A DNA stretch of 64,000 nt from NCBI RefSeq assembly GCF_016918035.1, contig NZ_JAERWK010000003.1, positions 231,109 through 295,108 of the forward strand. Reading direction: 5' to 3'. This DNA is from Nakamurella leprariae (lineage in GTDB: Bacteria; Actinomycetota; Actinomycetes; Mycobacteriales; Nakamurellaceae). Of this stretch, positions 10,103 through 21,221 are shown one piece after another. The notes under the pieces are model-generated. The model was not told the DNA's origin and searched no databases. It worked only from the letters and a program-made list of their open reading frames with translations. The translations under genes and the position numbers were made by a program. Numbering within the stretch: the stretch's first letter is position 1; every line of letters starts with the position of its first letter.

Positions 10103-12850
10103 TCATCGGTCCAGCAGCTGCCGGCCGACCAGGTCGGCGAACAGGCCCGGCTCGGCGATCAGCTCGTCGTAGCTGCCCTGCTGCACCACCCGGCCCGCGT
10201 CCAGCACCACGATGCGGTCCGCGTGCCGGATGGTCGAGAGCCGGTGCGCCACCACGATCCTGGTCACCCGAAGCCGGTCGAGCGAGGCCGCCACCTGAGC
10301 CTGGGACACGTTGTCCAGGGCGGAGGTGGCTTCGTCGAGCAGCAGGACGGCCGGCTCCGCGGCCAGCGCCCGGGCCAGCACGATCCGTTGCCGCTGCCCG
10401 CCGGAGAGCGTGCTGGCCCCCTCCACCACCACGGTCTGCAGTCCCATCGGCATGCGCCGGATGTCGTCGGCCACCGCGGCCGCCTCGGCCGCCCGCCAGA
10501 CCTGCTGCTGGGTCATCGGGCGGGAGCCGCGGATGTTGTCGGCCAGGTTGCCCGGGAACAGCGGTGACGACTGCAGCACGGTGCCGATCCGGCGGCGCAC
10601 CTCCCGCACGTCCAACCGGTCGAGGCTGACCCCGTCGTAGGCGACGACGCCCTGCTGTGGCCGCTCGAACCCCAGCAGCAGTCGCACCAGCGTCGACTTG
10701 CCCGACCCGGACGGCCCGACCACCGCGACGAACTCACCGGGACGAACGGTCAGCGAGACACCGCGCAGCACGTCGGGGCCGTCCGGCGTGTACCGGAAGG
10801 TGACCGAGGACAGGTCGACCGCGCCCCGGAGCCGCAGCCCTGCCCCCGACGCGCCGCCCGCCCCCGGTCGTCCACCCGCCCGGTCGTGCACGCTCTCCGG
10901 GACCGCCTCCAGGATCGGCGTCAGCTGCCGCAGCTGCGGACCGACGCCGACCAGCTGGGCCGCCGTGGTGACCAGCGACGACGTCCCGCCCAGCACCTGG
11001 CCCAGGGCCGTGGTGAGCAGGACGTACTGTGCGGCGGTGCCGGGGCCGGTCCCGGACAGGGTGTCCCCACCGGCCAGCACCACACCGGCCGTGATGGCCA
11101 GCGTGCCCAGGGTCTGCCAGGCGGCCAACCCGGTGCTCAGCACCGACGACCAGGTCGCCGACCGGAACGAAGTGTCGGTCAACGGCGCGAACCGGGCCGT
11201 GAGCTGCCGCATGGCCCGCTCCTCCGCCCCGAAGGCGCGGATCCGGGCGATGCCCTGCATCGTCTGCAGCGTCAGGTCGGCCAGCTGCTGCTGCTCGGTG
11301 ACCTGCTGCTGCACCAGCGGCCGCCACCGGCGCACCACCCACCAGAACGCCGCGGCCTGCACCGCCACCACCAGCAGGGTGAGCAGGCCGGCCTGCCAGC
11401 TCTGCAGCAGGATGAGCACCAGGCTGACCAGCACGCTCACCCCGGCCACCGTGGCCGAGACCAGCGAGTCGGCCACCACCTGCCGGAGCGTGTCGACGAC
11501 CGAGGCCCGCATGAGCAGCTCGCCGCTGCCGTGCCGGTTGAAGAACGCGGCGGGCAGGCGCAGCAGCCGGGCCCACACGGCGTCGCCGACCGCGGCGTCG
11601 AGCCGGGTGCGCACCCGGGCCGCGATCCGTCCCTGCAGCAGGGTCAGCACCGCGGTGGCCGCGATGACACCGGTCAGGGCCGCGACGAGAGCGGCCAGCC
11701 GGTCCGGCTGGTTGCCCGGCACGATCGAGCCGAAGATCGCCTCCCCGGCCAACGGCAGCAGCAGCGACGCCAGGCCCGCGACCAGGGCGATCAGCCCGAG
11801 CAGGCCCAGGTCCGGCCGGACCCCGCGGACCGCCAGCCGCCCCAGCGCGCGCCAGCCGGCGCGCTCCGGCAGTTCCGCGATCACGCCGACCGCGGTGGGC
11901 GCCAGCCCGGCCAGATCCTCGTGGGTGAGTCGCCGCTCGACCGCGGCGGTGGGATCGATCAACAGCGTGCCGCGCAGGCGCGGGACCAGCGCGACCGGGC
12001 GGCCGGCCAGCTCGGCCGCGACCGGACCGAGCAGGTTCCGCCGGCAATCCGGGCCGAGGTCGACCGTGCGCACCAGGTGACCGGCGGCCCGGGCCCGGGC
12101 AGTCAGGTCGGTGTGCGCCGGGACCGCGCCCGCCGTCGGCGGATCGGTCCCGACCGGAGCCGGGCCGACCGGCGCCGGGTCCAGCGCGGGCACGGGTGCA
12201 CCGATCCGGGCCAGCACGGCCCGCACCGGGTCCACGACCGCCGCGCCGGTCCGGGCACGCAACCGGGGCACCGCCGCGGCCAGTTCGTCGATGGCCTCGG
12301 CGTCCACCACCGCGGTGCCCCCCGGGGGGAGCGCAGGGGGCCGGCGCCGCAGCTCGGCCCGCCCGGCCTGTCGCTCGACCACGGCCTCGATGAGTTCGTC
12401 GGTGTGCCGGCGGACCCGTTCGACGGACCCCGTCGTCCCGCCCGACGCCGCTGGCTCGGTCGGCTCGGTCGGGTCGGTCGGCTCGGTCGGGTCGATCACC
12501 AGGTCGGCCGCCTCGGCCAGGGCGGCGAACCAGCGCTCCAGGGCGGCCGCGGTGGCCGGATCCCCTGGGTCCGGGTCCGGCAACGGGGTCAGTCGCACAG
12601 TCCCGACCGGGTCCACGACCAGTGCCCGGCCGGTCGGCGGCACCAGCAGGTCCCCGGCGTCCAGCACGGCCACCGCGGGCCGGTCGGCCGGTCGGTCCAG
12701 CGCTGCTTCAGGCGGTGCGCCGACCGGGACCTCCGGAGGCGCCAACCGGACCAACGCCTGGCCGCCGGTGACCAGCAGCCACGCCGAGCCGGCGGCCACC
12801 GTCCTGGTGCCACGGCCTCCGGCGTGGCCGGCGGGCAACACGGCGGTCAC
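10103..12850 (-). CDS. NHLM-type bacteriocin ABC exporter, second subunit (permease-ATPase, no peptidase)
   Basis: 915-aa half-transporter of the kind paired with NHLP-leader peptides. The first 400 or so residues form a divergent, Pro/Ala-rich N-terminal region with no C39 peptidase motif. Then come about six membrane segments (residues 420-650) and an ATPase domain with Walker A VVGPSGSGKST (about residue 710), signature LSGGQRQRI (about 814), Walker B AVLLLDEATSALD and the H-loop VVAHRLST. The GTG at 12850 overlaps the stop of the upstream exporter gene by 4 nt (GTGA), so the two are translationally coupled. It probably forms a heterodimer with that protein to export the NHLP-derived peptides. 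Confidence 0.92.
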   Translation of the reverse strand: MTAVLPAGHAGGRGTRTVAAGSAWLLVTGGQALVRLAPPEVPVGAPPEAALDRPADRPAVAVLDAGDLLVPPTGRALVVDPVGTVRLTPLPDPDPGDPATAAALERWFAALAEAADLVIDPTEPTDPTEPTEPAASGGTTGSVERVRRHTDELIEAVVERQAGRAELRRRPPALPPGGTAVVDAEAIDELAAAVPRLRARTGAAVVDPVRAVLARIGAPVPALDPAPVGPAPVGTDPPTAGAVPAHTDLTARARAAGHLVRTVDLGPDCRRNLLGPVAAELAGRPVALVPRLRGTLLIDPTAAVERRLTHEDLAGLAPTAVGVIAELPERAGWRALGRLAVRGVRPDLGLLGLIALVAGLASLLLPLAGEAIFGSIVPGNQPDRLAALVAALTGVIAATAVLTLLQGRIAARVRTRLDAAVGDAVWARLLRLPAAFFNRHGSGELLMRASVVDTLRQVVADSLVSATVAGVSVLVSLVLILLQSWQAGLLTLLVVAVQAAAFWWVVRRWRPLVQQQVTEQQQLADLTLQTMQGIARIRAFGAEERAMRQLTARFAPLTDTSFRSATWSSVLSTGLAAWQTLGTLAITAGVVLAGGDTLSGTGPGTAAQYVLLTTALGQVLGGTSSLVTTAAQLVGVGPQLRQLTPILEAVPESVHDRAGGRPGAGGASGAGLRLRGAVDLSSVTFRYTPDGPDVLRGVSLTVRPGEFVAVVGPSGSGKSTLVRLLLGFERPQQGVVAYDGVSLDRLDVREVRRRIGTVLQSSPLFPGNLADNIRGSRPMTQQQVWRAAEAAAVADDIRRMPMGLQTVVVEGASTLSGGQRQRIVLARALAAEPAVLLLDEATSALDNVSQAQVAASLDRLRVTRIVVAHRLSTIRHADRIVVLDAGRVVQQGSYDELIAEPGLFADLVGRQLLDR

Positions 12851-15120
12851 GAGCGCACCAGCCGGGCGTAGGCGCCGTCGAGCGCCAGCAGCTCGCCGTG
12901 GGCGCCGCGTTCCACCACGACACCCGCGTCCAGCACCACGATCTCGTCGGCGTCGCGCACCGTGCTGAGCCGGTGGGCCACGATCAGACAGGTGCAGTTG
13001 CGCCGGCGCAGGGCCAGGTCGATGCGCTGCTCGGTCACGGTGTCCAGCGCGCTGGTCGCCTCGTCGAGCACCATCACCGCCGGATCCCGGACCAGCGCCC
13101 GGGCGATCTCCACCCGCTGCCGCTGACCGCCGGACAGCCCCAGACCGCTCGGGCCCAGCAGGCTGTCGTACCCACCGGGTCGGGCGGTGACGACCTCGGT
13201 GAGACCGGCGTCGGCCACGGCCCGGACCACGGCCTCGTCCGGCACGGTCGGATCCCACAGCGTGATGTTGTCGCGGATGCTCGCCTCGAACAGGCACACG
13301 TCCTGGTCCACGAACCCGATGCCGTCGGTGAGCAGCCGACGGTCCCAGTCCGACCGCGGGCGGCCGTCCACCAGCACCCGACCCGCGGTCGGCTGCTGCA
13401 GTCCGGCGACCAGCCGGGCGACGGTGGACTTGCCGCTGCCGCTGGCCCCGACCACGGCGACCCGCGACCCCGGGGCCAGGTCGAGGTCCAGGTCCCGGAT
13501 GAGCGGCGGTTCCAACGGGGCGTACCCGAAATCGACTTGCTGAAGCGTGATCCGGCCACGCACCGGCTCGACCCGGTCCGGCTCGGAACTGTTCCGCTCG
13601 CACCGGTCCCGGACGGTGGCCCCACCGGCGGAGCGGGCCAGCGACGCTGCGATCTCCGGGTCGACCGCGGCCCGGTCGACGTCCTGCAACCGCACCGCGG
13701 TGGCCGACAGCGCCTCCAGTTGACCACCGAGCGCGGCCAGCAGGCTGAGCGGGGCCAGCACACTGCCCATCAGCACCTGGACGGCCAGCAGCCCGCCCAG
13801 CGACAGGTCGGTCTGCATGACCAGTACCGCACCGACGGACAACAGGGCCAGCGTGCCGAGACTGGTGAGCGCGGTGGGGATGACGGTGAGCGGCAGCAGC
13901 GCGAGGTCCTGCCGCTGCCGGACGGCCAGCAGCCGGCTCCGGGCCGCGCTGATGGTCAGCACCGCCTGTTCCTCGCCACCCTGGGCCTTGATCGACTCGA
14001 TCAGGTTGAGCGATCCGGACTGCACCACCGCGGCGTCGATCTGGTCGCGCATCTGCCGGGTGCTCAGGTCCCGCTGCCGTCGCCCCGTCCAGCGCAGCAG
14101 CAGCAGCACGGCCGCGGCGGCCAGCAGCACGATGCCGCCCAGGACCGGGCTGATGACGACGATGACCACCAGGTAGACCACCGCCACGGTGGTGCTCAGC
14201 AGCGCCGAGACCAGGGGCCCCGACAGCAGTCCGGCCACCGCCGTGCCCAGGCCCGCACGGTAGGCGACGTCGCTGGCGGCGCGCTGCCCGAAGAACCGCA
14301 TCGACAGCCTCAGGATGCGCTGGGTCTGGGCGGCGAAGATGCCGCTGGTCAGCGCGGTCCGGAGCCCGTTGATGACCCGTTGCTGCCACCACGTCATGGT
14401 CAGCTGGACGACCGCCGCGGCGGCCATGCCCCCGAGGATGACCGGGAGGTAGCCGGTGCGCCCCCCGACCAGGAAGCCGTCGACGAAGGCCCGCGACAGG
14501 GCCGGCACCGCGAGTCCCGGCACCAGCAGGACCAGGCTGGCCAGCACCACGTGCAGCAGGGCCCACCGGAACGGCTGCAACCGACTCAGCAGGGCCCGGC
14601 GCAGCCCGGGACGTCGGCCGCCCGGCTCGAACTCCGGGCCCGGCGTGCACTCCAGGACGATGCCGGAGAACGACCGGTCGAACTCGGCGTCGTCGACCTC
14701 CCGCGGACCGGACGCCGGGTCGTTGAGGTACCAGGTGCCGCGCTTCCAGCCCTCGACGACCAGGAAGTGGTCCATCCGCCAGAACACGATGAACGGCACC
14801 GTGGTGCGTCGCACCGTGCGCGGCGTGCGCCGGAACGCCTTGACCTGCAGCCCGTACGCCCGTCCGGCCCGCAGCACCGAGCGGGCGTTGCTGCCGTCGC
14901 GCGAGACGCCCACGGCGTCCCGCAGTTCCTCCAGGCCCACCCAGCGCCCGAAGTGGGCCAGCACGATGCCCAGGGCAGCGGCGCCGCACTCGACGGCCTC
15001 CATCTGCAGCACGGTGGGACACCGGACGCGGATCCGCTCCGGCACCGCCGGCTCGGCCGGTGTCGACGCCGGTGCGTCGCCGACGGGCGTCCCGCGGGGC
15101 ACGGTCGCGGCTCGCGTCAT
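12847..15120 (-). CDS. NHLM-type ABC exporter with C39 leader peptidase (peptidase-permease-ATPase)
   Basis: 757-aa bifunctional exporter. Residues 30-160 are a C39 cysteine peptidase that cuts double-glycine leaders: Q39, catalytic C45 (QMEAVECGAAALGIV), H118 (RMDHFLVVEG) and D134 (LNDPASG) are all present. Membrane segments (about 170-450) and an ATPase domain follow, with Walker A VVGASGSGKST near 555, signature LSGGQRQRVEIARAL near 660 and Walker B VMVLDEATSALD. The ATG at 15120 starts 4 nt after the stop of the adaptor gene. It would cleave after ASGG in the four precursors at 19336-20836 and export the cores. Confidence 0.95.
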   Translation of the reverse strand: MTRAATVPRGTPVGDAPASTPAEPAVPERIRVRCPTVLQMEAVECGAAALGIVLAHFGRWVGLEELRDAVGVSRDGSNARSVLRAGRAYGLQVKAFRRTPRTVRRTTVPFIVFWRMDHFLVVEGWKRGTWYLNDPASGPREVDDAEFDRSFSGIVLECTPGPEFEPGGRRPGLRRALLSRLQPFRWALLHVVLASLVLLVPGLAVPALSRAFVDGFLVGGRTGYLPVILGGMAAAAVVQLTMTWWQQRVINGLRTALTSGIFAAQTQRILRLSMRFFGQRAASDVAYRAGLGTAVAGLLSGPLVSALLSTTVAVVYLVVIVVISPVLGGIVLLAAAAVLLLLRWTGRRQRDLSTRQMRDQIDAAVVQSGSLNLIESIKAQGGEEQAVLTISAARSRLLAVRQRQDLALLPLTVIPTALTSLGTLALLSVGAVLVMQTDLSLGGLLAVQVLMGSVLAPLSLLAALGGQLEALSATAVRLQDVDRAAVDPEIAASLARSAGGATVRDRCERNSSEPDRVEPVRGRITLQQVDFGYAPLEPPLIRDLDLDLAPGSRVAVVGASGSGKSTVARLVAGLQQPTAGRVLVDGRPRSDWDRRLLTDGIGFVDQDVCLFEASIRDNITLWDPTVPDEAVVRAVADAGLTEVVTARPGGYDSLLGPSGLGLSGGQRQRVEIARALVRDPAVMVLDEATSALDTVTEQRIDLALRRRNCTCLIVAHRLSTVRDADEIVVLDAGVVVERGAHGELLALDGAYARLVRS

Positions 15121-15124
15121 CGCC

Positions 15125-15997
15125 TCAGCCGCCCAGCAGGTAGCTGAGCGGTTCGCGCGTGCCGAGTTCGATCGATCCGGTCAGCGAGGTCGTCGGCGCG
15201 ACGGCGAACGGCGGCCCGTCGTCCGAGGTCCAGGCGTAGCCGGACGCTGTGTCGGCGCGGATCAGGTCCACCACCACCCGGACGGACCCGACACCGCCCA
15301 ACGAGGCGGCCAGCTGGGTGTTGCCCCCGGCCAGCTGGACGAAGTCGGCCCGGTCGTACGGCAACGGGTCGACCGAGCGCACCGTGCCGCGCAGCTCCCC
15401 CCAGGCGCTGGCGGACACGGTCGACGGGGTGAGCCGCACCGGCATGCCAGGGAGCACCCTGGACCCGGCGGATGGATCGATGAACAGCAACGCCACCGAC
15501 CGCTCGGCCGAGGACAGCAGCTGTCCGACGACGGCACCGGCGGTCAGCGGGGTGCCGACGGCGAGCGGGGTCCGGGCGACCAGGACGCCATCGACCTGGG
15601 CGGTGACGTCGCTGGTGCCCCCGTCGGGGGTCCGGACGGTCAGCAGCCGCTGACCGGCCTGCACGGTCACGCCGGGCATGGTCGGGTCGGCGTCGTCGAT
15701 GGCGGGGACGTCGGCCACCACGCCGCCCGCGGCAGCGGTCACGGCGACCAGACCCTCCGGTGGGAGCAGGATCCCGGCCCCGGCGACCGTGACGGGGGCC
15801 CGGCCGAACACTGCCCAGACCACCGCGGCCACCGCGACCAGACCGACCACGATCAGGGCGAGCCAGGACCGCGGCGGCGCCACGGTCAGACTGCTGTCCA
15901 GCCGTCGTTGCGCGTCCAGTTGCGCGACGGCCTCCGGCCGGAAGAGCCCGCCGGGGGCCGGACCGGTCGGTCCGGGCGACGTGGTGGGGGTCGACAT
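15125..15997 (-). CDS. HlyD-like secretion adaptor of NHLM bacteriocin system
   Basis: 290-aa membrane-fusion-type protein. It has a short cytoplasmic N-terminus rich in Pro and Thr, one membrane segment (residues 44-64), then extracytoplasmic biotinyl-lipoyl-like and beta-barrel segments (GVVADVPAIDDADPTMPGVTVQAGQRLL ... VDGVLVARTPLAVGTPL shows the split hairpin layout, broken by a short insertion). It is first in the export operon and would couple the two ABC subunits to release across the envelope. The ATG at 15997 follows GAGGAAC; the frame is open further upstream, but that part crosses the intergenic promoter region. It is divergent from the LanM-like gene. Confidence 0.85.
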   Translation of the reverse strand: MSTPTTSPGPTGPAPGGLFRPEAVAQLDAQRRLDSSLTVAPPRSWLALIVVGLVAVAAVVWAVFGRAPVTVAGAGILLPPEGLVAVTAAAGGVVADVPAIDDADPTMPGVTVQAGQRLLTVRTPDGGTSDVTAQVDGVLVARTPLAVGTPLTAGAVVGQLLSSAERSVALLFIDPSAGSRVLPGMPVRLTPSTVSASAWGELRGTVRSVDPLPYDRADFVQLAGGNTQLAASLGGVGSVRVVVDLIRADTASGYAWTSDDGPPFAVAPTTSLTGSIELGTREPLSYLLGG

Positions 15998-16085
15998 GGG
16001 TTCCTCTTCGGTGGCCGGGCACGGGGAGGTCGGAACGGCACACTCCCTCAGCGCGACGAGCGCGGCGGGAGGGCCTCGGCAAGAT

Positions 16086-16113
16086 CGTGACACAGCGTTT
16101 AGTCTTCGTCACG
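16086..16113. promoter_or_regulatory. Leaderless lanM-like promoter with inverted-repeat operator candidate
   Basis: TAGTCT (16100-16105) is a -10 box exactly 8 nt before the GTG at 16114, so the transcript is probably leaderless. No good -35 box is visible. CGTGAC (16086-16091) and GTCACG (16108-16113) form an inverted repeat with centres 22 bp apart (two helical turns) that brackets the -10 box and is a candidate repressor or activator site for the divergent cluster promoters. Confidence 0.5.
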
Positions 16114-19077
16114 GTGAGTACGCAAGTGATCGTATCCGAGCCCTCCGGCGAGCGCGCTGATCCCGCCACCGCACCTCCGGCCGACCCGACGATGCCGCCG
16201 TTCGCACCGGTCCTGGCCGCCCTGGTCGAGCCGACCGCGCGACGGCTGGCGCCGCGGTTGCACGACCTGGACCCGGCCGGGGCGGACGCCGCCGTCCGCG
16301 GGTGGGCCGATCTGCTGGCCGGCCGTGTCCACGACCTGCTCCAGGAGGTGCTGGCCGGTGAGTTCACCGCCTGGTGCGCCGTCCGGGGCCCGTTCGCCGG
16401 GACCGGCCCGGCCGCCGAGACCCGCCTGCTGGCGGGGTTCACCGCGCACGTGCTCACCGACGACCCGGCGTGGCTGACTCGCCGGTACCCCGAGGCGGCC
16501 CGACTGGTCGGCGTCCTGGCCGGGCACGCGGCGGCCGCGGCCGTCGAGCTGCACGAGCGCCTGGCTTCGGCGCGGCCGCAGCTGGCGGCCGGCTTCGGCA
16601 TCGCCGCCGACGACCCCCTGGTGGACCTGCGGGCCGGCGCGGGCGACAGCCACCGCGGCGGCCGCACCGTGGTGCTGCTGACCTTCGGCTCGGGCCGCCG
16701 GGTGGTGGCCAAGCCCCGCTCCGTCCGGCCGGAACGAGTGCTCGAGGCGCTGCTGCACGCGGTCGCCCTGGCCGCCGGCGATCCGGGCTGGGACCCGGTC
16801 GTCGCGCTGGACACCGGCAACCTCGCCGACGCCGGCTGGATGGAGTTCGTCGAGGCCCTGCCGGCGACCGCACCGGCCGACGTCGACCGCTTCTTCCGCC
16901 GCGCCGGCATGCTGCTGGCCACGGCGCACGCGATCGGGATGGACGACCTGCACTCCGAGAACGTGATCGCGCGGCGCGACCGGCCCGTGGTCATCGACGC
17001 CGAGACCCTCCTGCCGGCGGTCTGTCTCGGCCGGCCCGGGGCCGGGCTCGATCCGGCGGCCGAGGCCTACCCGGCCACCGTGCTGGGCACCGGGCTGCTC
17101 CCCCGCTGGATCCCGGTGCACCGCCAACGGCTCGAGCGGTCCGGTCACGTCGTCCAGCTCGGCGGGCTAGGCCCGATCGACCTCGGGACCCAGCCCGGAC
17201 TGGCCTGGACCGGCAGCGGCGCCACGCTGCGGCGGGAGGTGGTCGCCGTCCGACGAGCCCGGGGTGGCAACCTGCCGGTACTCGACGATCGGGTGCACAC
17301 CGCCGACGAAGCCCGCGAGCAGGTCGAGGACGGATTCCGGGCGGCGGCGGCCGCCCTGCTGCGGCACCGGAACGCCTGGGAGTCCGCCGGTGGGGTGCTG
17401 GCGGAGCTGCGGGCCACCCGGGTGCGGGTGGTGCCCCGCAACACCGCCACCTACGCCGCGGCGCTCCGGCGGACCACCGGCCGCCGGTTCCTGCGCTCCG
17501 GCGCGGTCCGCACCGCCGGTCTGCAGGACCGTCTCGGCCTGGATGCGGCACCGGCGTCCGCAGCGCTGCGGACGGCCGAGCTGGACGCGCTGCAGCAGCT
17601 GGACGTTCCACTGTTCACGGCGGACCCCGAACGGACGGCGGTGGACACGGCGCACGGGACCGGGGCTGCGGACCCCGGCCACGAGCCCGCCGCGGTGCAG
17701 CTGACCGCAGCGCCCGCGGCCGTGTCCAGGAACCGGCTGGAGGACTGGGACGACCGACACCTGATCCGGCAGACCGAGCTGCTGCGCGCGACCCTGACAG
17801 CCCCGTGGACCGGCGCCCTCCCGGTGGTCGCGGCGCGGCCCGGTCATCGCACGGCCGCGGAGATCGACGGTCGGGTCGCCGATCTCGCCGACGTCATCGA
17901 CGGCGCCGGCGTGACCGCGGCCGGCCGCACGGCGTGGCTGGCCGTGCGCCGGGACCCGCTGACCTCCACCACCGCGGCCGGTCCCGCCGGCTGCGGACTG
18001 CTCGACGGTGGCGCCGGGATCGCCCTGTTCCTGACCGAGGCCGGGCACGCACTGCGCACCGAACGATGGCACGACCGCCGCGACGGCGCGATCACCGCCG
18101 TGCTCGACGGGACGCGGTTCCTGCTCGGTCCGTCCGCACCGGACACCGGGGCGCCGATCGACCTCGGCCTGGACGACGGCATCGGCGGCGTGGTGTGGAC
18201 CCTGGCCCGCATCGCCCGACGCCTGGACACCGCCGACGGACACCGGCTCGTCGGAGCCGCCGCCGACCTGGCGGCCGCCGCGGTGGTCCGGACCGACCTG
18301 AGCCGGGTCCGCGCCGACGCGGCCGGCGGCATCGCCGGCCTGATCACCGGCTTGACCGAGCTCGCCCGCACCACCGCCCTCGCCGTCGCCGCGGACGGGC
18401 CGACCCCCGCGACCGGCTCTGCCGCCGACTCCGGGATCGCCGCGCTGGTCGACACGCTGACCCGGGCGCTGCTGAGCCGCGGCGCCGACGGCGATGACCG
18501 CACGTCCCGGCCCGGGTCGCTCGTCGACGAGGCCGGCATCCTCCGGGCGCTCGCCGGAGCCGCGGAGGTCACACCCGGCCTGCGGGACGAGATCACCGCT
18601 GTCGTGGCGGGTTCCGCGACACGGTGGGGATCGACACCCGCGCGGTCGGCCGGAGCAGTCCCGGACCTGGACACCGCCCGGGCGCTGGTCACCGTCGGCC
18701 ACGCGGCCCGGGCCCTGCACACCGCCCCACCCGGAGCTGTCGCGTCCGGGCAGCCGGCCGCCCCCGCCGAGCACGGCCTGCGGCGGGGTGTGGCCGGCTG
18801 GCTCGACCTGGCCCGCACCACGGCGACCCATCACCCGTCCGGAACCGGGAGCGGATCGGCCCCGGCACCGGTCCACGACCTGACCGCGATGCTGCTCACC
18901 CCGGTCGACCGGCTGCGGTTGATCGGTCCGCAGGTGGCGCCGTGGCTGGTCTGCGGCCTGGGCGACGGGCTGGCCGGCGTCGGGCTCGTCCTGCTGGGTG
19001 ACTCCCTACCGGACGTGGTGGGTCCGCTGCTGGACCCGGCGCAGCCACCGCGGCCGCGTCCTGCGGGTGATCACTGA
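16114..19077 (+). CDS. LanM-like lanthipeptide synthetase with intact dehydratase and degenerate cyclase half
   Basis: 987-aa class II lanthipeptide synthetase-like protein. Residues 1-560 are the kinase-like dehydratase (DUF4135) domain, with K200 (VVAKPRS), the catalytic loop D278-L-H280-x-x-N283 (GMDDLHSENVIARRD) and metal-binding D295-x-E297 (VVIDAETL), so phosphorylation and elimination of Ser/Thr looks possible. Residues 600-980 resemble LanC (LLDGGAGIALF, LDDGIGGVVWTL, GLGDGLAGVGLVLL), but the Trp-Cys-x-Gly and Cys-His-Gly zinc ligands are not there. The only Cys residues in that half are C627 and C947, next to glycine turns. The GTG at 16114 is preferred over 16087 because of the promoter position and because 16087 would add a rare TTA codon. 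Its substrates are probably the four NHLP precursors downstream. Confidence 0.88.
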   Translation: MSTQVIVSEPSGERADPATAPPADPTMPPFAPVLAALVEPTARRLAPRLHDLDPAGADAAVRGWADLLAGRVHDLLQEVLAGEFTAWCAVRGPFAGTGPAAETRLLAGFTAHVLTDDPAWLTRRYPEAARLVGVLAGHAAAAAVELHERLASARPQLAAGFGIAADDPLVDLRAGAGDSHRGGRTVVLLTFGSGRRVVAKPRSVRPERVLEALLHAVALAAGDPGWDPVVALDTGNLADAGWMEFVEALPATAPADVDRFFRRAGMLLATAHAIGMDDLHSENVIARRDRPVVIDAETLLPAVCLGRPGAGLDPAAEAYPATVLGTGLLPRWIPVHRQRLERSGHVVQLGGLGPIDLGTQPGLAWTGSGATLRREVVAVRRARGGNLPVLDDRVHTADEAREQVEDGFRAAAAALLRHRNAWESAGGVLAELRATRVRVVPRNTATYAAALRRTTGRRFLRSGAVRTAGLQDRLGLDAAPASAALRTAELDALQQLDVPLFTADPERTAVDTAHGTGAADPGHEPAAVQLTAAPAAVSRNRLEDWDDRHLIRQTELLRATLTAPWTGALPVVAARPGHRTAAEIDGRVADLADVIDGAGVTAAGRTAWLAVRRDPLTSTTAAGPAGCGLLDGGAGIALFLTEAGHALRTERWHDRRDGAITAVLDGTRFLLGPSAPDTGAPIDLGLDDGIGGVVWTLARIARRLDTADGHRLVGAAADLAAAAVVRTDLSRVRADAAGGIAGLITGLTELARTTALAVAADGPTPATGSAADSGIAALVDTLTRALLSRGADGDDRTSRPGSLVDEAGILRALAGAAEVTPGLRDEITAVVAGSATRWGSTPARSAGAVPDLDTARALVTVGHAARALHTAPPGAVASGQPAAPAEHGLRRGVAGWLDLARTTATHHPSGTGSGSAPAPVHDLTAMLLTPVDRLRLIGPQVAPWLVCGLGDGLAGVGLVLLGDSLPDVVGPLLDPAQPPRPRPAGDH

Positions 19078-19110
19078 GCGACGGAGGGCGACCGCCGACC
19101 GGTGCACTTG

Positions 19111-19157
19111 ATCACTCTTCGTAGTGATTGCGCACGCAGAGTATTGAGTCCTACCGT
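19111..19157 (+). promoter_or_regulatory. Probable promoter of the precursor operon with overlapping inverted repeat
   Basis: TTGCGC (19128-19133) and TACCGT (19152-19157) with 18-bp spacing make a plausible sigma-A promoter, giving an untranslated leader of about 170 nt. ATCACT (19111-19116) and AGTGAT (19123-19128) form a perfect inverted repeat with a 6-nt centre that touches the -35 box, a position suited to a regulator. Apart from this, 19078-19335 has no gene that I can support. Confidence 0.45.
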
Positions 19158-19335
19158 TGCCGATGGGGGGTCGCCCGCAGTCTCCGGCGCCGCATCCCGA
19201 TCGCCACCGGCCAGCATCCGCGTCCGCGACAACCACGGTCCGGCACCACCGTTGACCGACCCGGCGGTCCGGCTCCGATCCGGTCCACCGGAGCCGGCCC
19301 GTCCCAGTCCGTCCCCGTCCGAAGGGCACCCGCAC

Positions 19336-19674
19336 GTGAACGTCACCGATCTGCAGGTCAAGGCCGCCACCGACCCGGAGTTCCGGGCCGCTCTCTTCGC
19401 CGATCCGCGGGCCGCCCTGGCCGCGGAGGGCATCCAGCTGCCCGACGACCTCACCGTCCGCGTGGTCGAGAGCACCCCCCAGCAGGTCGTGCTGTCCATC
19501 CCGGCCCCGGTGTCCGAGGACGTCGAGCTCGGGGAGGACGCACTGGCCGGAGCTTCCGGCGGCACCACCCCGGCGTTCCCCGTCGCCCTCGGGCTGCAGT
19601 GGCTCGGCATCGCCGGCGGCCTGGGCATCCTCGGCGGCGCCGGCTACGGCGCCTACGACCGCTGGGCCAAGTGA
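19336..19674 (+). CDS. NHLP-leader RiPP precursor 1
   Basis: 112-aa precursor with a nitrile-hydratase-alpha-like leader (TDPEFRAALFADPRAALAAEG ... LPDDLTVRVVEST, shown with a break) of 76 residues ending in GASGG. The 36-residue core starts TTPAFP and ends YDRWAK. It has no Cys and no Ser; its only Thr residues are the first two. It holds three GxxxG motifs (core G15-G19, G21-G25, G25-G29) and an aromatic, charged tail. GTG start with GAAGGG 9 nt upstream. Substrate of the LanM-like enzyme and of the C39 exporter by context. Confidence 0.9.
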   Translation: MNVTDLQVKAATDPEFRAALFADPRAALAAEGIQLPDDLTVRVVESTPQQVVLSIPAPVSEDVELGEDALAGASGGTTPAFPVALGLQWLGIAGGLGILGGAGYGAYDRWAK

Positions 19675-19735
19675 CTCCCGCGCTGCGCCTCCGCCCGACC
19701 GACCCACCGATCCGCCCGCTGCCCGGAGGTACCCG

Positions 19736-20083
19736 ATGACCGACCACACACCGGCCGCCACCCCGCCCGTCGCGACGCTGGAGGACCTCAACCTGCGGGC
19801 TGCGACCGACCCGGAGTTCAGAGCCGCGCTGCTCGCCGACCCCAGGAGGGTGCTGGCCGAGCTCGGCCTCGAGCTGCCCGCCGAGGTCTCCGTCCGGGTC
19901 GTCGAGTCGACCGTCACCGACCTGCGGATCGCGCTGCCGCCGGCGCTCCCCGATGACGTCGAGCTGAGCGAGGACGCCCTGGCCGACGCCTCCGGGGGGA
20001 CCACCCCGGTGCTGCCGATCATCTTCTACGGCTCCTGCGTCGGCCTCGGCTTCGGCGCAGCCAAGCTGACCAACATCCTCTGA
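19736..20083 (+). CDS. NHLP-leader RiPP precursor 2
   Basis: 115-aa precursor. The leader is 88 residues because of a 12-residue N-terminal extension, and it ends in ADASGG. The 27-residue core starts TTPVLP and has GxxxG motifs at core G11-G15 and G15-G19. It contains the only Cys of the whole set (core C13), one Ser and three Thr. ATG with GGAGG upstream; 61 bp after precursor 1. A single Cys could make at most one thioether ring, or a disulfide between two peptide copies. Confidence 0.9.
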   Translation: MTDHTPAATPPVATLEDLNLRAATDPEFRAALLADPRRVLAELGLELPAEVSVRVVESTVTDLRIALPPALPDDVELSEDALADASGGTTPVLPIIFYGSCVGLGFGAAKLTNIL

Positions 20084-20102
20084 GTCCGGGAACGAGCCCG
20101 CC

Positions 20103-20417
20103 ATGAACCTGAGCGACATCCAGATCCGGTCCGCCACGGACCCGGCCTTCCGCGCTGCCCTGCTCGACGATCCGCGCGCGGTGTTCGCCGGGCTCGGTGT
20201 CGAGGTCCCCGACGGGATCACCATCACCGTCGAGGAGTCCACCCCCACCGAATTCGTGCTGGCGATCCCACCCGTCGTTCCCGACGACGTGCCGCTGGAC
20301 GACGACGCGCTGGCCGCCGCCTCCGGCGGCACCACGCCGGTGACGTTCACCAGCATCGTCCCGCTCGGGGCGTCGGCCGCGGTGGGCGTCGGCTTCGTCC
20401 TCGGCAAGATCTTCTGA
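20103..20417 (+). CDS. NHLP-leader RiPP precursor 3
   Basis: 104-aa precursor with a 76-residue leader ending AAASGG and a 28-residue core starting TTPVTFTS and ending VLGKIF. The core has four Thr, two Ser and no Cys, so it is the richest dehydration target of the four. It has GxxxG at core G21-G25 and SxxxG at S15-G19. The start is 19 bp after precursor 2 with only a weak ribosome binding site, suggesting translational coupling in one operon. Confidence 0.9.
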   Translation: MNLSDIQIRSATDPAFRAALLDDPRAVFAGLGVEVPDGITITVEESTPTEFVLAIPPVVPDDVPLDDDALAAASGGTTPVTFTSIVPLGASAAVGVGFVLGKIF

Positions 20418-20506
20418 TCCGAGCGGCCCCCGGTCCGCCCACGCCCGTTCCGAGTCCATCCCCACCCGCCGGCCCGTCCGGGTCGGCCCCAGCCGAGAGG
20501 CCCCTC

Positions 20507-20836
20507 GTGGACACCAACGAGATCATCATCCGCAGCGCGACCGATCCCGCCTTCCGCGCCGCGCTGCTGGCCGACCCCAAGGCCGTCCTGACCGAACACG
20601 GGATCACGCTGCCCGACGACGTCGAGGTGCGCATCGAGGAGTCCACTCCCACCGAGTTCGTGCTGGCCGTCCCGCCGGCCCTGCCCGAGGACCTGGAACT
20701 GGACGACGACGCGCTGGCCCAGGCGTCGGCCGGCACCGGCCCGCTGCTCATTCCCACCCTGCTGTGGGGTCTGGGTTCCGGGGTGGCCGCCGCCGGTGGC
20801 ATCGTCGGCGGTTTCGAGCTGGTCAAGCACATCTGA
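20507..20836 (+). CDS. NHLP-leader RiPP precursor 4
   Basis: 109-aa precursor. Its leader is close to that of precursor 3 (both contain EESTPTEFVLA) but ends QASAG instead of ASGG, so the P2 residue for the C39 peptidase is Ala. The 33-residue core begins TGPLLIPT and ends FELVKHI, with GxxxG motifs at core G12-G16, G21-G25 and G22-G26, two Thr, one Ser and no Cys. GTG start after GAGAGG. Either a slower-processed member or one with a different function. Confidence 0.88.
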   Translation: MDTNEIIIRSATDPAFRAALLADPKAVLTEHGITLPDDVEVRIEESTPTEFVLAVPPALPEDLELDDDALAQASAGTGPLLIPTLLWGLGSGVAAAGGIVGGFELVKHI

Positions 20837-20885
20837 GTCGCCCGGACAGGTGCCCGGCCCGCGGCACGTCGGGCAGAATCGGGCC

Positions 20886-21221
20886 ATGAGCATCGTCAAG
20901 ATCAACGCCATCACCGTGCCCTCGGACAGCGGCGACGAGCTGGCCAAGCGGTTCGCCGCGCGGGCCGGCGCGGTCGACGACCAGGACGGTTTCGAGGGAT
21001 TCGAGTTGCTGCAGCCCACCGACGAGCGCACCACCTGGCTGGTGGTCACCCGCTGGCGGGACGAGGAGTCGTTCCAGGCCTGGGTCAGCTCGCCGGCGTT
21101 CTCCCACGGACACCGGTCCGAGAGCGAGCGGTCCGGTGGTGCCCCGCAGGCCCACGTCGGGGTGTCCAGCGAGCTGTGGTCCTACGTGCCGGCCGGTGGT
21201 TCGGCCGGCAACCGGGTCTGA
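20886..21221 (+). CDS. mhuD: MhuD-like heme-degrading monooxygenase (ABM domain)
   Basis: 111-aa ferredoxin-like (ABM/IsdG-family) protein, close over its length to mycobacterial MhuD, which opens heme to mycobilin and releases iron. It keeps N7 (VVKINAI context reads SIVKINAIT), W66 (SFQAW) and a His near position 75 (SHGH, H74 and H76; the gap placement is unsure) as heme ligand. The C-terminus is longer than in IsdG, as in MhuD. The ATG lies 50 bp after precursor 4, and a possible -10 CAGAAT 6 nt before it hints at its own promoter. Membership in the RiPP cluster is therefore doubtful. Confidence 0.82.
   Translation: MSIVKINAITVPSDSGDELAKRFAARAGAVDDQDGFEGFELLQPTDERTTWLVVTRWRDEESFQAWVSSPAFSHGHRSESERSGGAPQAHVGVSSELWSYVPAGGSAGNRV

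What the first reader, a model, noticed from the sequence alone, without database searches (positions are those of the whole stretch)
10103..20836. NHLP/LanM cluster predicted to make a four-component set of Cys-poor, GxxxG-rich peptides
The sequence shows a LanM-like enzyme, a C39 exporter, a second NHLM exporter, an adaptor and four tandem precursors. The four cores (36, 27, 28 and 33 residues) hold one Cys in total, so ordinary lanthionine networks cannot form. Every core is hydrophobic and has one to three GxxxG motifs, which are known helix-packing motifs of class IIb two-peptide bacteriocins. I infer membrane-active, possibly multi-component helical peptides that are dehydrated by LanM but not cyclised. 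I know of no described system with this exact combination.
Basis: partly seen in the sequence, partly recalled or inferred. Interest (0 to 1): 0.9.

Follow-up and report, generated by a model that had tools for sequence, protein, structure and literature searches.

The report
Ring-less lanthipeptide cluster with helical peptides
A bacterial gene cluster encodes four small, almost cysteine-free peptides beside a lantibiotic-type enzyme that keeps its dehydration residues but has lost the metal-binding residues of its ring-closing half, so it likely makes ring-less, dehydrated, membrane-active peptides, a variant that would link lantibiotics to unmodified two-peptide bacteriocins.

Summary
The window carries a divergent NHLM exporter set (ABC2, C39-ABC1, HlyD), a LanM-like enzyme and four tandem NHLP-leader precursors whose cores (36, 27, 28, 33 aa) hold one Cys. 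The new evidence is in the enzyme: it keeps all nine residues needed for phosphorylation and phosphate elimination, and its predicted model keeps the LanC toroid, but none of the three zinc ligands remains. It belongs to a supported clade of seven (this enzyme, five database proteins, one genome contig) without those ligands. The two further clade clusters that could be read, in a same-genus genome and an Actinomycetota MAG, each carry 7 precursors of the same kind. Cores tend to start x-[ST]-P and are enriched in GxxxG beyond composition. In core 1 the only Ser/Thr are T1 and T2. Best reading: an N-terminal dehydratase without ring closure, feeding a multi-peptide set of hydrophobic helices. 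Against it: six of 27 cores lack any Ser/Thr at +1/+2, and MAG cores carry T-P-x-C, where one small ring is possible. Cys-less NHLPs beside LanM and dehydratase-only LanMs are already in print, so this is a new variant of a known kind. Product chemistry and activity are untested.

The parts
10103..12850 (-). NHLM export ABC transporter 2 (no peptidase domain), 915 aa, GTG start overlapping the stop of ABC1
   Evidence: TIGR03797 617 bits (below its equivalog cut-off 709); coordinates
12847..15120 (-). NHLM exporter 1 with N-terminal C39 peptidase, 757 aa; predicted to cut after the GG/AG motif and export
   Evidence: TIGR03796 842 bits (cut-off 853), Peptidase_C39 104.9 bits; Cys/His/Asp motifs ECG, DHF, NDP present (their catalytic role is recalled)
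15125..15997 (-). NHLM HlyD-type adaptor, 290 aa
   Evidence: TIGR03794 123 bits (cut-off 156) on the longer frame 15128-16093; ATG at 15997
16126..19077 (+). LanM-like enzyme, 983 aa (start codon uncertain: 16087, 16114 or 16126): intact DUF4135 dehydratase, LanC-type domain without zinc ligands
19336..19674 (+). NHLP precursor 1; leader 76 aa, core TTPAFPVALGLQWLGIAGGLGILGGAGYGAYDRWAK (only Ser/Thr are T1, T2)
   Evidence: TIGR03793 55.8 bits
19736..20083 (+). NHLP precursor 2; core TTPVLPIIFYGSCVGLGFGAAKLTNIL (the only core Cys, C13)
   Evidence: TIGR03793 54.7 bits; GGAGG six bases upstream of the ATG
20103..20417 (+). NHLP precursor 3; core TTPVTFTSIVPLGASAAVGVGFVLGKIF
   Evidence: TIGR03793 49.5 bits, just under the cut-off
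20507..20836 (+). NHLP precursor 4 (leader ends AG); core TGPLLIPTLLWGLGSGVAAAGGIVGGFELVKHI
   Evidence: TIGR03793 53.9 bits

Best explanation
The locus encodes four NHLP-leader precursor peptides, their NHLM-type exporter and a LanM-like enzyme that keeps all nine residues known to be needed for dehydration but none of the three zinc ligands of the cyclase, so it likely dehydrates threonines at the start of the cores without closing thioether rings, and the exported peptides would act as a multi-component set of hydrophobic helices. Steps shown from sequence: gene content, leader family, Cys-poor cores, residue pattern of the enzyme, zinc-ligand loss across the clade, x-[ST]-P as the commonest core start, GxxxG enrichment. 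Steps inferred: leader-guided phosphorylation and elimination at T1/T2 to dehydrobutyrine; C39 cleavage after GG; opening of an exposed N-terminal dehydrobutyrine to a 2-oxobutyryl cap, as in lichenicidin; membrane insertion and helix-helix packing of several peptides, as in class IIb bacteriocins. The cyclase-derived domain would serve as a scaffold or substrate-holding domain.
For: Zinc ligands: CylM uses Cys875, Cys911, His912 (PMC4550811, passages). Of 161 aligned LanMs, 135 have all three ligands (third His or Cys), 16 lack both Cys, 1 is partial, 9 are gapped there; the window has G, R, R. In the clade P0001-P0006 plus L008, 5 of 7 are among the 16, and the other two (P0002, P0003) are gapped at the first column with R-S and R-D at the Cys-His pair. 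The pair reads RR, RS, RD, AR, SR, RR in P0001-P0006 and TR in L008. The window's cyclase region has two Cys, 623 and 943, neither at a ligand site. Dehydration: D252, H254, K274, D347, H349, N352, D364, R506, T512 (CylM numbers) are all kept. Fold kept. Clade: 7 of 7 rows on one branch, SH-aLRT 100; among the 161, no other sequence has a clade member as best hit. Genome: no other LanC-like domain. Cores (27): S/T at +2 in 17, P at +3 in 22, S/T at +1 or +2 in 21; background S/T 10%, P 4%. Cys 8 in 981 residues; 5 of the 8 lie in T-P-x-C at the core start, which suggests that this Thr is a dehydration site. GxxxG enrichment. One same-genus precursor scores over the class IIb cerein 7B cut-off (23.7 against 21.5 bits).
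Against: No mass or activity data. Six of 27 cores have no Ser/Thr at +1 or +2, three of them in the same-genus LanM cluster, so N-terminal dehydration cannot be the rule for all. [ST]-P is also a plain helix N-cap (recalled). Four of 7 cores of the MAG cluster carry Cys, so small rings may form in relatives. None of the four window precursors matches the class IIb model at E 0.1. The precursor model is low-confidence in the core (pLDDT about 47-57). No immunity gene was recognised among the neighbours scanned. R506 and T512 are mapped by motif and spacing, not by the printed CylM alignment, which stops earlier.
Confidence: 0.5

Rival explanations
1. The cores are unmodified class IIb-like bacteriocins that use NHLP leaders for export; [ST]-P is only a helix N-cap, and the LanM acts weakly, on other precursors, or not at all.
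For: GxxxG enrichment; TIGR03949 hits in 6 of 24 precursors at E 0.1: all four of L133, one of L108, one of L008, one of them over the cut-off, the same protein that NCBI names a class IIb bacteriocin (P0076); the four L133 precursors have no LanM or exporter seen nearby; 6 of 27 cores lack Ser/Thr at +1/+2.
Against: All nine dehydration residues are kept in a diverged clade, which argues for use; the LanM lies beside precursors in all three clusters read (window, L008, L108). None of the four window precursors hits the class IIb model, and that model also covers the end of the leader, so part of the scores is leader.
Confidence: 0.25
2. The cyclase domain closes small thioether rings without zinc, as class III enzymes do; the clade makes one-ring T-P-x-C peptides and the window cores are the Cys-less extreme.
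For: STPTC, STPAC, STPLC and IVSTPAC in 4 of 7 L008 cores, STPGC in P0069; a weak match of L008's enzyme to the class III LanKC model (whole-protein E 2.1e-13, 49.6 bits against a cut-off of 575, best stretch 815-923, no stretch passing alone); a metal-independent class III synthetase is described (PMC10604976, search listing only).
Against: Three of four window cores have no Cys, and core 2 has C13 only; the 11 cores of the other same-genus genome hold 1 Cys. LanC domains are shared by all classes, so the LanKC match says little.
Confidence: 0.12
3. The enzyme only phosphorylates Thr, as EmbM does in phospeptin.
For: LanM-like, Cys-less core, Thr near the core start, as in phospeptin (PMC9505594, passages).
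Against: EmbM is described as missing the elimination residues; D252, H254, R506, T512 are all kept here.
Confidence: 0.05
4. A decaying lantibiotic cluster that has lost Cys and zinc ligands.
For: Zinc ligands and Cys are both gone; clade sporadic (2 of 17 genomes of the genus).
Against: Intact frames for all eight genes; the same state in the other six clade members at 34-46% identity to it; conserved leader and core start; 4, 7 and 7 precursors in the three clusters read.
Confidence: 0.06

Closest known systems
Class II lanthipeptides (LanM; e.g. lichenicidin/LicM2, roseocin)
   Same: LanM architecture; LicM2 is the top structure match; roseocin-family clusters use NHLP leaders (PMC10027976, passages); two-component sets; lichenicidin peptides carry N-terminal 2-oxobutyryl (PMC5487065, passages)
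   Different: Here no zinc ligands and almost no Cys, so no ring network; four cores of another type
LanMbC / dehydrazoles (CcaM)
   Same: DUF4135 fused to a LanC domain without zinc ligands, NHLP leader, dehydration without rings (PMC10676384, abstract and passages)
   Different: CcaM needs azoles made by YcaO; no YcaO found in this genome. The same-genus LanM with YcaO and TfuA (L116) falls outside the clade, on a long branch whose place is unsure
PoyF (polytheonamides)
   Same: LanM-type dehydration of an N-terminal core Thr behind an NHLP leader, then an alpha-keto cap (PMC9505594, passages)
   Different: PoyF is a dehydratase domain without cyclase domain; many other modifications there
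Phospeptin EmbM
   Same: LanM-like enzyme, Cys-less core, Thr near the core start (PMC9505594, passages)
   Different: Elimination residues missing there, present here; Nif11 leader there
Cys-less NHLPs beside LanM (Haft et al. 2010)
   Same: Noted there; presumed to stay dehydrated (PMC2887384, passages)
   Different: No link in the passages read to zinc-ligand loss, xTP core start or GxxxG helices
Class IIb two-peptide bacteriocins
   Same: Hydrophobic cores with GxxxG, double-glycine export; all characterised class IIb have GxxxG-type motifs (PMC6382864, passages)
   Different: Long NHLP leader, LanM next door, four peptides, no recognised immunity gene, no match of the window's precursors to the class IIb model

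Membership tests
Class II lanthipeptide | LanM dehydratase domain with catalytic residues | tested here: met
   DUF4135 264 bits; nine residues kept; TIGR03897 303.3 against a cut-off of 304
Class II lanthipeptide | zinc-binding cyclase domain | tested here: not met
   Fold kept but no ligand Cys/Cys/His
Class II lanthipeptide | Cys in cores to form (methyl)lanthionine | tested here: not met
   One Cys in four cores
Class II lanthipeptide | thioether rings in the product | not testable with these tools
   needs mass spectrometry
NHLP-leader peptides (proteusin leader family) | NHLP leader with GG/AG cleavage motif | tested here: met
   3 of 4 over the TIGR03793 cut-off, the other at 49.5 against 50.9
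NHLP-leader peptides (proteusin leader family) | NHLM three-gene exporter nearby | tested here: met
   Best NCBIfam matches are TIGR03794, 03796, 03797, each below its equivalog cut-off
LanMbC / dehydrazole | LanM with zinc-free cyclase domain | tested here: met
LanMbC / dehydrazole | YcaO partner making azoles | tested here: not met
   0 matches at E 0.001 in the genome, 99% complete
Class IIb bacteriocin | GxxxG-type motifs in hydrophobic cores | tested here: met
Class IIb bacteriocin | match to class IIb profile (TIGR03949) | tested here: not met
   no match at E 0.1 for precursor 1, 2, 3 and 4; 6 of the 20 related precursors match
Class IIb bacteriocin | synergy of two peptides and an immunity protein | not testable with these tools
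   needs bioassay; no immunity gene recognised among the neighbours scanned
PoyF-type dehydratase | dehydratase domain alone, no cyclase domain | tested here: not met
   LanC toroid retained in the model

The most novel reading that the evidence does not exclude
A new ring-less RiPP class: a LanM clade that gave up thioether chemistry and became an N-terminal Thr dehydratase, producing sets of 4-7 helical membrane peptides with dehydrobutyrine or 2-oxobutyryl caps that assemble through GxxxG contacts, a hybrid of lantibiotic machinery and class IIb bacteriocin action, with further precursors elsewhere in the genome modified in trans.
Probability: 0.3. Interest if true: 0.75.

Novelty: new variant of a known kind. 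Interest (0 to 1): 0.5.

Why it matters
It gives a natural test of what a LanM does once cyclisation is removed: the enzyme, the cores and the clade all changed together. Core 1 offers exactly two modifiable residues, so one co-expression experiment would settle the chemistry. If the peptides prove active in combination, the line between lantibiotics and unmodified multi-peptide bacteriocins becomes a gradient that can be followed from T-P-x-C (one possible ring) to TTP (none).

Tried and rejected
YcaO-dependent dehydrazole: rejected, no YcaO found in the genome. A separate LanC acting in trans: the PF05147 search found only the weak match inside this LanM. Phosphorylation only: unlikely, elimination residues kept. 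Linking zinc-less LanMs in general to Cys-less cores: tried on four other zinc-less loci (L055, L058, L067, L073) by a crude ORF pattern scan; no precursors could be assigned, dropped. Core-only Pfam scan of the four cores: one sub-threshold PsbJ match to core 2 (13.2 against a cut-off of 30 bits), otherwise empty. Precursor structure: leader start confident, core not. A profile search with A1 (E up to 1e-60) listed 21 proteins; the only clade members among them were already known (P0001, P0002, P0004).

Rows dropped before counts: the 27 cores are the 24 precursors of A3 plus P0069, P0077, P0079; P0080-P0086 were left out as not core-type, and the other rows were not added because they come from the window's genome or from the same-genus genome already in A3. 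Four of 165 LanM hits were too short for the 161; loci L078 and L083 gave no row. L108 and P0006 are the same protein, so the 16 zinc-less rows contain one duplicate. Genes between about 7.2 and 24.0 kb were scanned for families; the rest of the 64 kb window was not.
Full report
What is there. The window lies in a 4.47 Mb genome (G000, contig C16). A same-genus genome, G013, has a contig of 338456 bases, the contig length given for a Nakamurella sp. YIM 132087 protein (P0006), so the genus is probably Nakamurella (inference). On the minus strand lie ABC2 (10103-12850), the C39 exporter ABC1 (12847-15120) and the HlyD adaptor (15125-15997); the LanM-like gene (start 16087-16126, end 19077) runs the other way, followed by four precursors (19336-20836). 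All three exporter genes have an NHLM model as best NCBIfam match but fall below its equivalog cut-off, so they are divergent. Neighbours scanned on both sides are a nucleotidyl transferase, an acyltransferase, a formyltransferase-domain protein, an ABM-domain monooxygenase, TauE, DUF5709, one protein without a family and MarR; no extra modifying enzyme was seen among them. The rest of the window was not scanned.

The enzyme. DUF4135 is complete (264 bits) while LANC_like matches only residues 634-763 at 19 bits, under its cut-off. CylM studies name Lys274, Asp347, His349, Asn352, Asp364 for phosphorylation and Asp252, His254, Arg506, Thr512 for elimination, and Cys875, Cys911, His912 as zinc ligands (PMC4550811, passages). 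Counting along the printed phmmer alignment to CylM (5dzt) places the first seven; it stops before 506, so R506 and T512 are assigned to the invariant R434 and nearly invariant T440 by motif and by the same spacing of six. In an alignment of 161 LanMs the window enzyme keeps all nine and has G, R, R where the ligands should be. The motif is LRRG where canonical enzymes have LCHG; the NisC motifs WCYG and CHG are 95% and 98% conserved among 66 class I cyclases (PMC3091789, passages). The cyclase region has two Cys, 623 (CGLLDGG) and 943 (VCGLGDG), neither at a ligand site. Of the 161, 135 carry all three ligands, 16 lack both Cys (one duplicate row), 1 is partial, 9 are gapped.

The clade. Protein searches gave five database relatives at 35-46% identity (P0002-P0006), and one scan of genome contigs added L008, an Actinomycetota MAG at 34%. 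With the window's own enzyme these seven rows sit on one branch with SH-aLRT 100 in a 56-row tree. In a comparison of all 161 LanMs, only these (and the duplicate L108) have a clade member as best hit; loci L078 and L083 were too short to be included, and the L078 fragment is nearer to other LanMs. The LanM of the same-genus YcaO/TfuA cluster (L116), which resembles the LanMbC type in print, falls outside, on a long branch whose place is unsure. All seven lack the ligand motifs by eye; five are classed so by the column test and two are gapped at the first column. In the genus, 2 of 17 genomes carry the clade (G000, G013).

The relatives' clusters. L108 (G013): 7 precursors, LanM, HlyD, ABC1, ABC2. 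L008: 7 precursors, LanM, HlyD, then the contig ends. G013 has 4 more precursors at another place without LanM or exporter recognised nearby (L133), and the window's genome has 2 more singles (L110, L111). So one enzyme may serve precursors in several places, as prochlorosin synthetases do (recalled).

The cores. For 27 cores: Ser/Thr at +2 in 17, Pro at +3 in 22, both in 16, Ser/Thr at +1 in 12, at +1 or +2 in 21; after +5 the background is 10% S/T and 4% P. Cys: 8 in 981 residues, in 7 of 27 cores; 5 of the 8 lie in T-P-x-C at the core start (4 of 7 L008 cores and P0069), the spacing of nisin ring B (recalled). I read this as a sign that this Thr is the dehydrated residue. In the window's core 1 the only Ser/Thr are T1 and T2, so any dehydration there must be N-terminal. 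GxxxG: 46 against 28.8 +- 4.4 in shuffles, with spacing 4 the peak. Against the reading: 6 of 27 cores have no Ser/Thr at +1/+2, and [ST]-P can be a helix N-cap. The class IIb model TIGR03949 matches 6 of 24 precursors at E 0.1, one over its cut-off, but none of the window's four; Pfam Bacteriocin_IIc matches 3 of 24 (best 0.0012). The cores are related, so the statistics are nominal.

Mechanism. I commit to leader-guided dehydration of T1/T2 (shown: residues and substrate positions; inferred: the reaction), cleavage and export by C39-ABC1 (inferred from domain and GG/AG), and membrane insertion of several hydrophobic helices (inferred from hydropathy and GxxxG). An N-terminal dehydrobutyrine would open to 2-oxobutyryl, a group that both lichenicidin peptides carry (PMC5487065, passages), and as in the PoyF route to an alpha-keto end (PMC9505594, passages).

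What is in print. Haft et al. [quoted passage not shown] A 2020 survey left out LanM precursors lacking Cys in LanM/LanKC clusters (PMC7268733, passages). Full-text searches for proteusin/LanM terms, zinc-lacking LanM, NHLP with class IIb, Nakamurella with lanthipeptide, NHLP with bacteriocin terms, LanM with GxxxG and LanM with Cys-free terms showed no title or abstract start describing this combination; lists were cut at 20 of 30, 35, 33 and 107 papers, only the papers cited as passages were opened, and the library lacks most subscription journals.

Verdict. A real, coherent variant: new variant of a known kind. Interest 0.5, because the parts are individually known and the product is untested; it would rise if N-terminal dehydration and multi-peptide activity were shown.

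Noticed in passing
L133:8778-10323 (G013): Four NHLP precursors of the same core type with no LanM or exporter recognised nearby; all four match the class IIb (cerein 7B) model at E 0.1, one over its cut-off, 23.7 against 21.5 bits.
   Followed up: partly
L110:9014-9343 and L111:10430-10807 (window's own genome): Two single orphan NHLP precursors (cores TGFVG..., ATPFF...) far from the LanM, possible in-trans substrates.
   Followed up: partly
L008:7038-9834: 4 of 7 cores carry T-P-x-C at the core start beside a zinc-less LanM: a possible one-ring intermediate state.
   Followed up: partly
L023:1041-3983 (Ardenticatenia MAG): LanM-like protein with no zinc ligands and with the D252, H254 and T512 equivalents replaced: a possible phosphorylation-only enzyme like EmbM.
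   Followed up: no
P0013, P0034, L055:8846-12643 (Streptomyces): A separate supported group of three LanMs with intact dehydration residues and no zinc Cys, probably an independent loss.
   Followed up: no
L116:4146-11511 (G006, same genus): Nif11-type peptide, YcaO, TfuA and a LanM with complete DUF4135 followed by two large ORFs that look like ABC transporters by eye: a dehydrazole-like cluster.
   Followed up: partly
L135:8878-9447 (G005, same genus): NHLP-like precursor whose core begins DINCCCCPCCCCT, the opposite Cys extreme in the same genus.
   Followed up: no
window 20883-21221: Antibiotic biosynthesis monooxygenase (ABM) domain gene directly behind precursor 4; the best NCBIfam matches are haem oxygenases below cut-off; not thought part of the cluster.
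   Followed up: no
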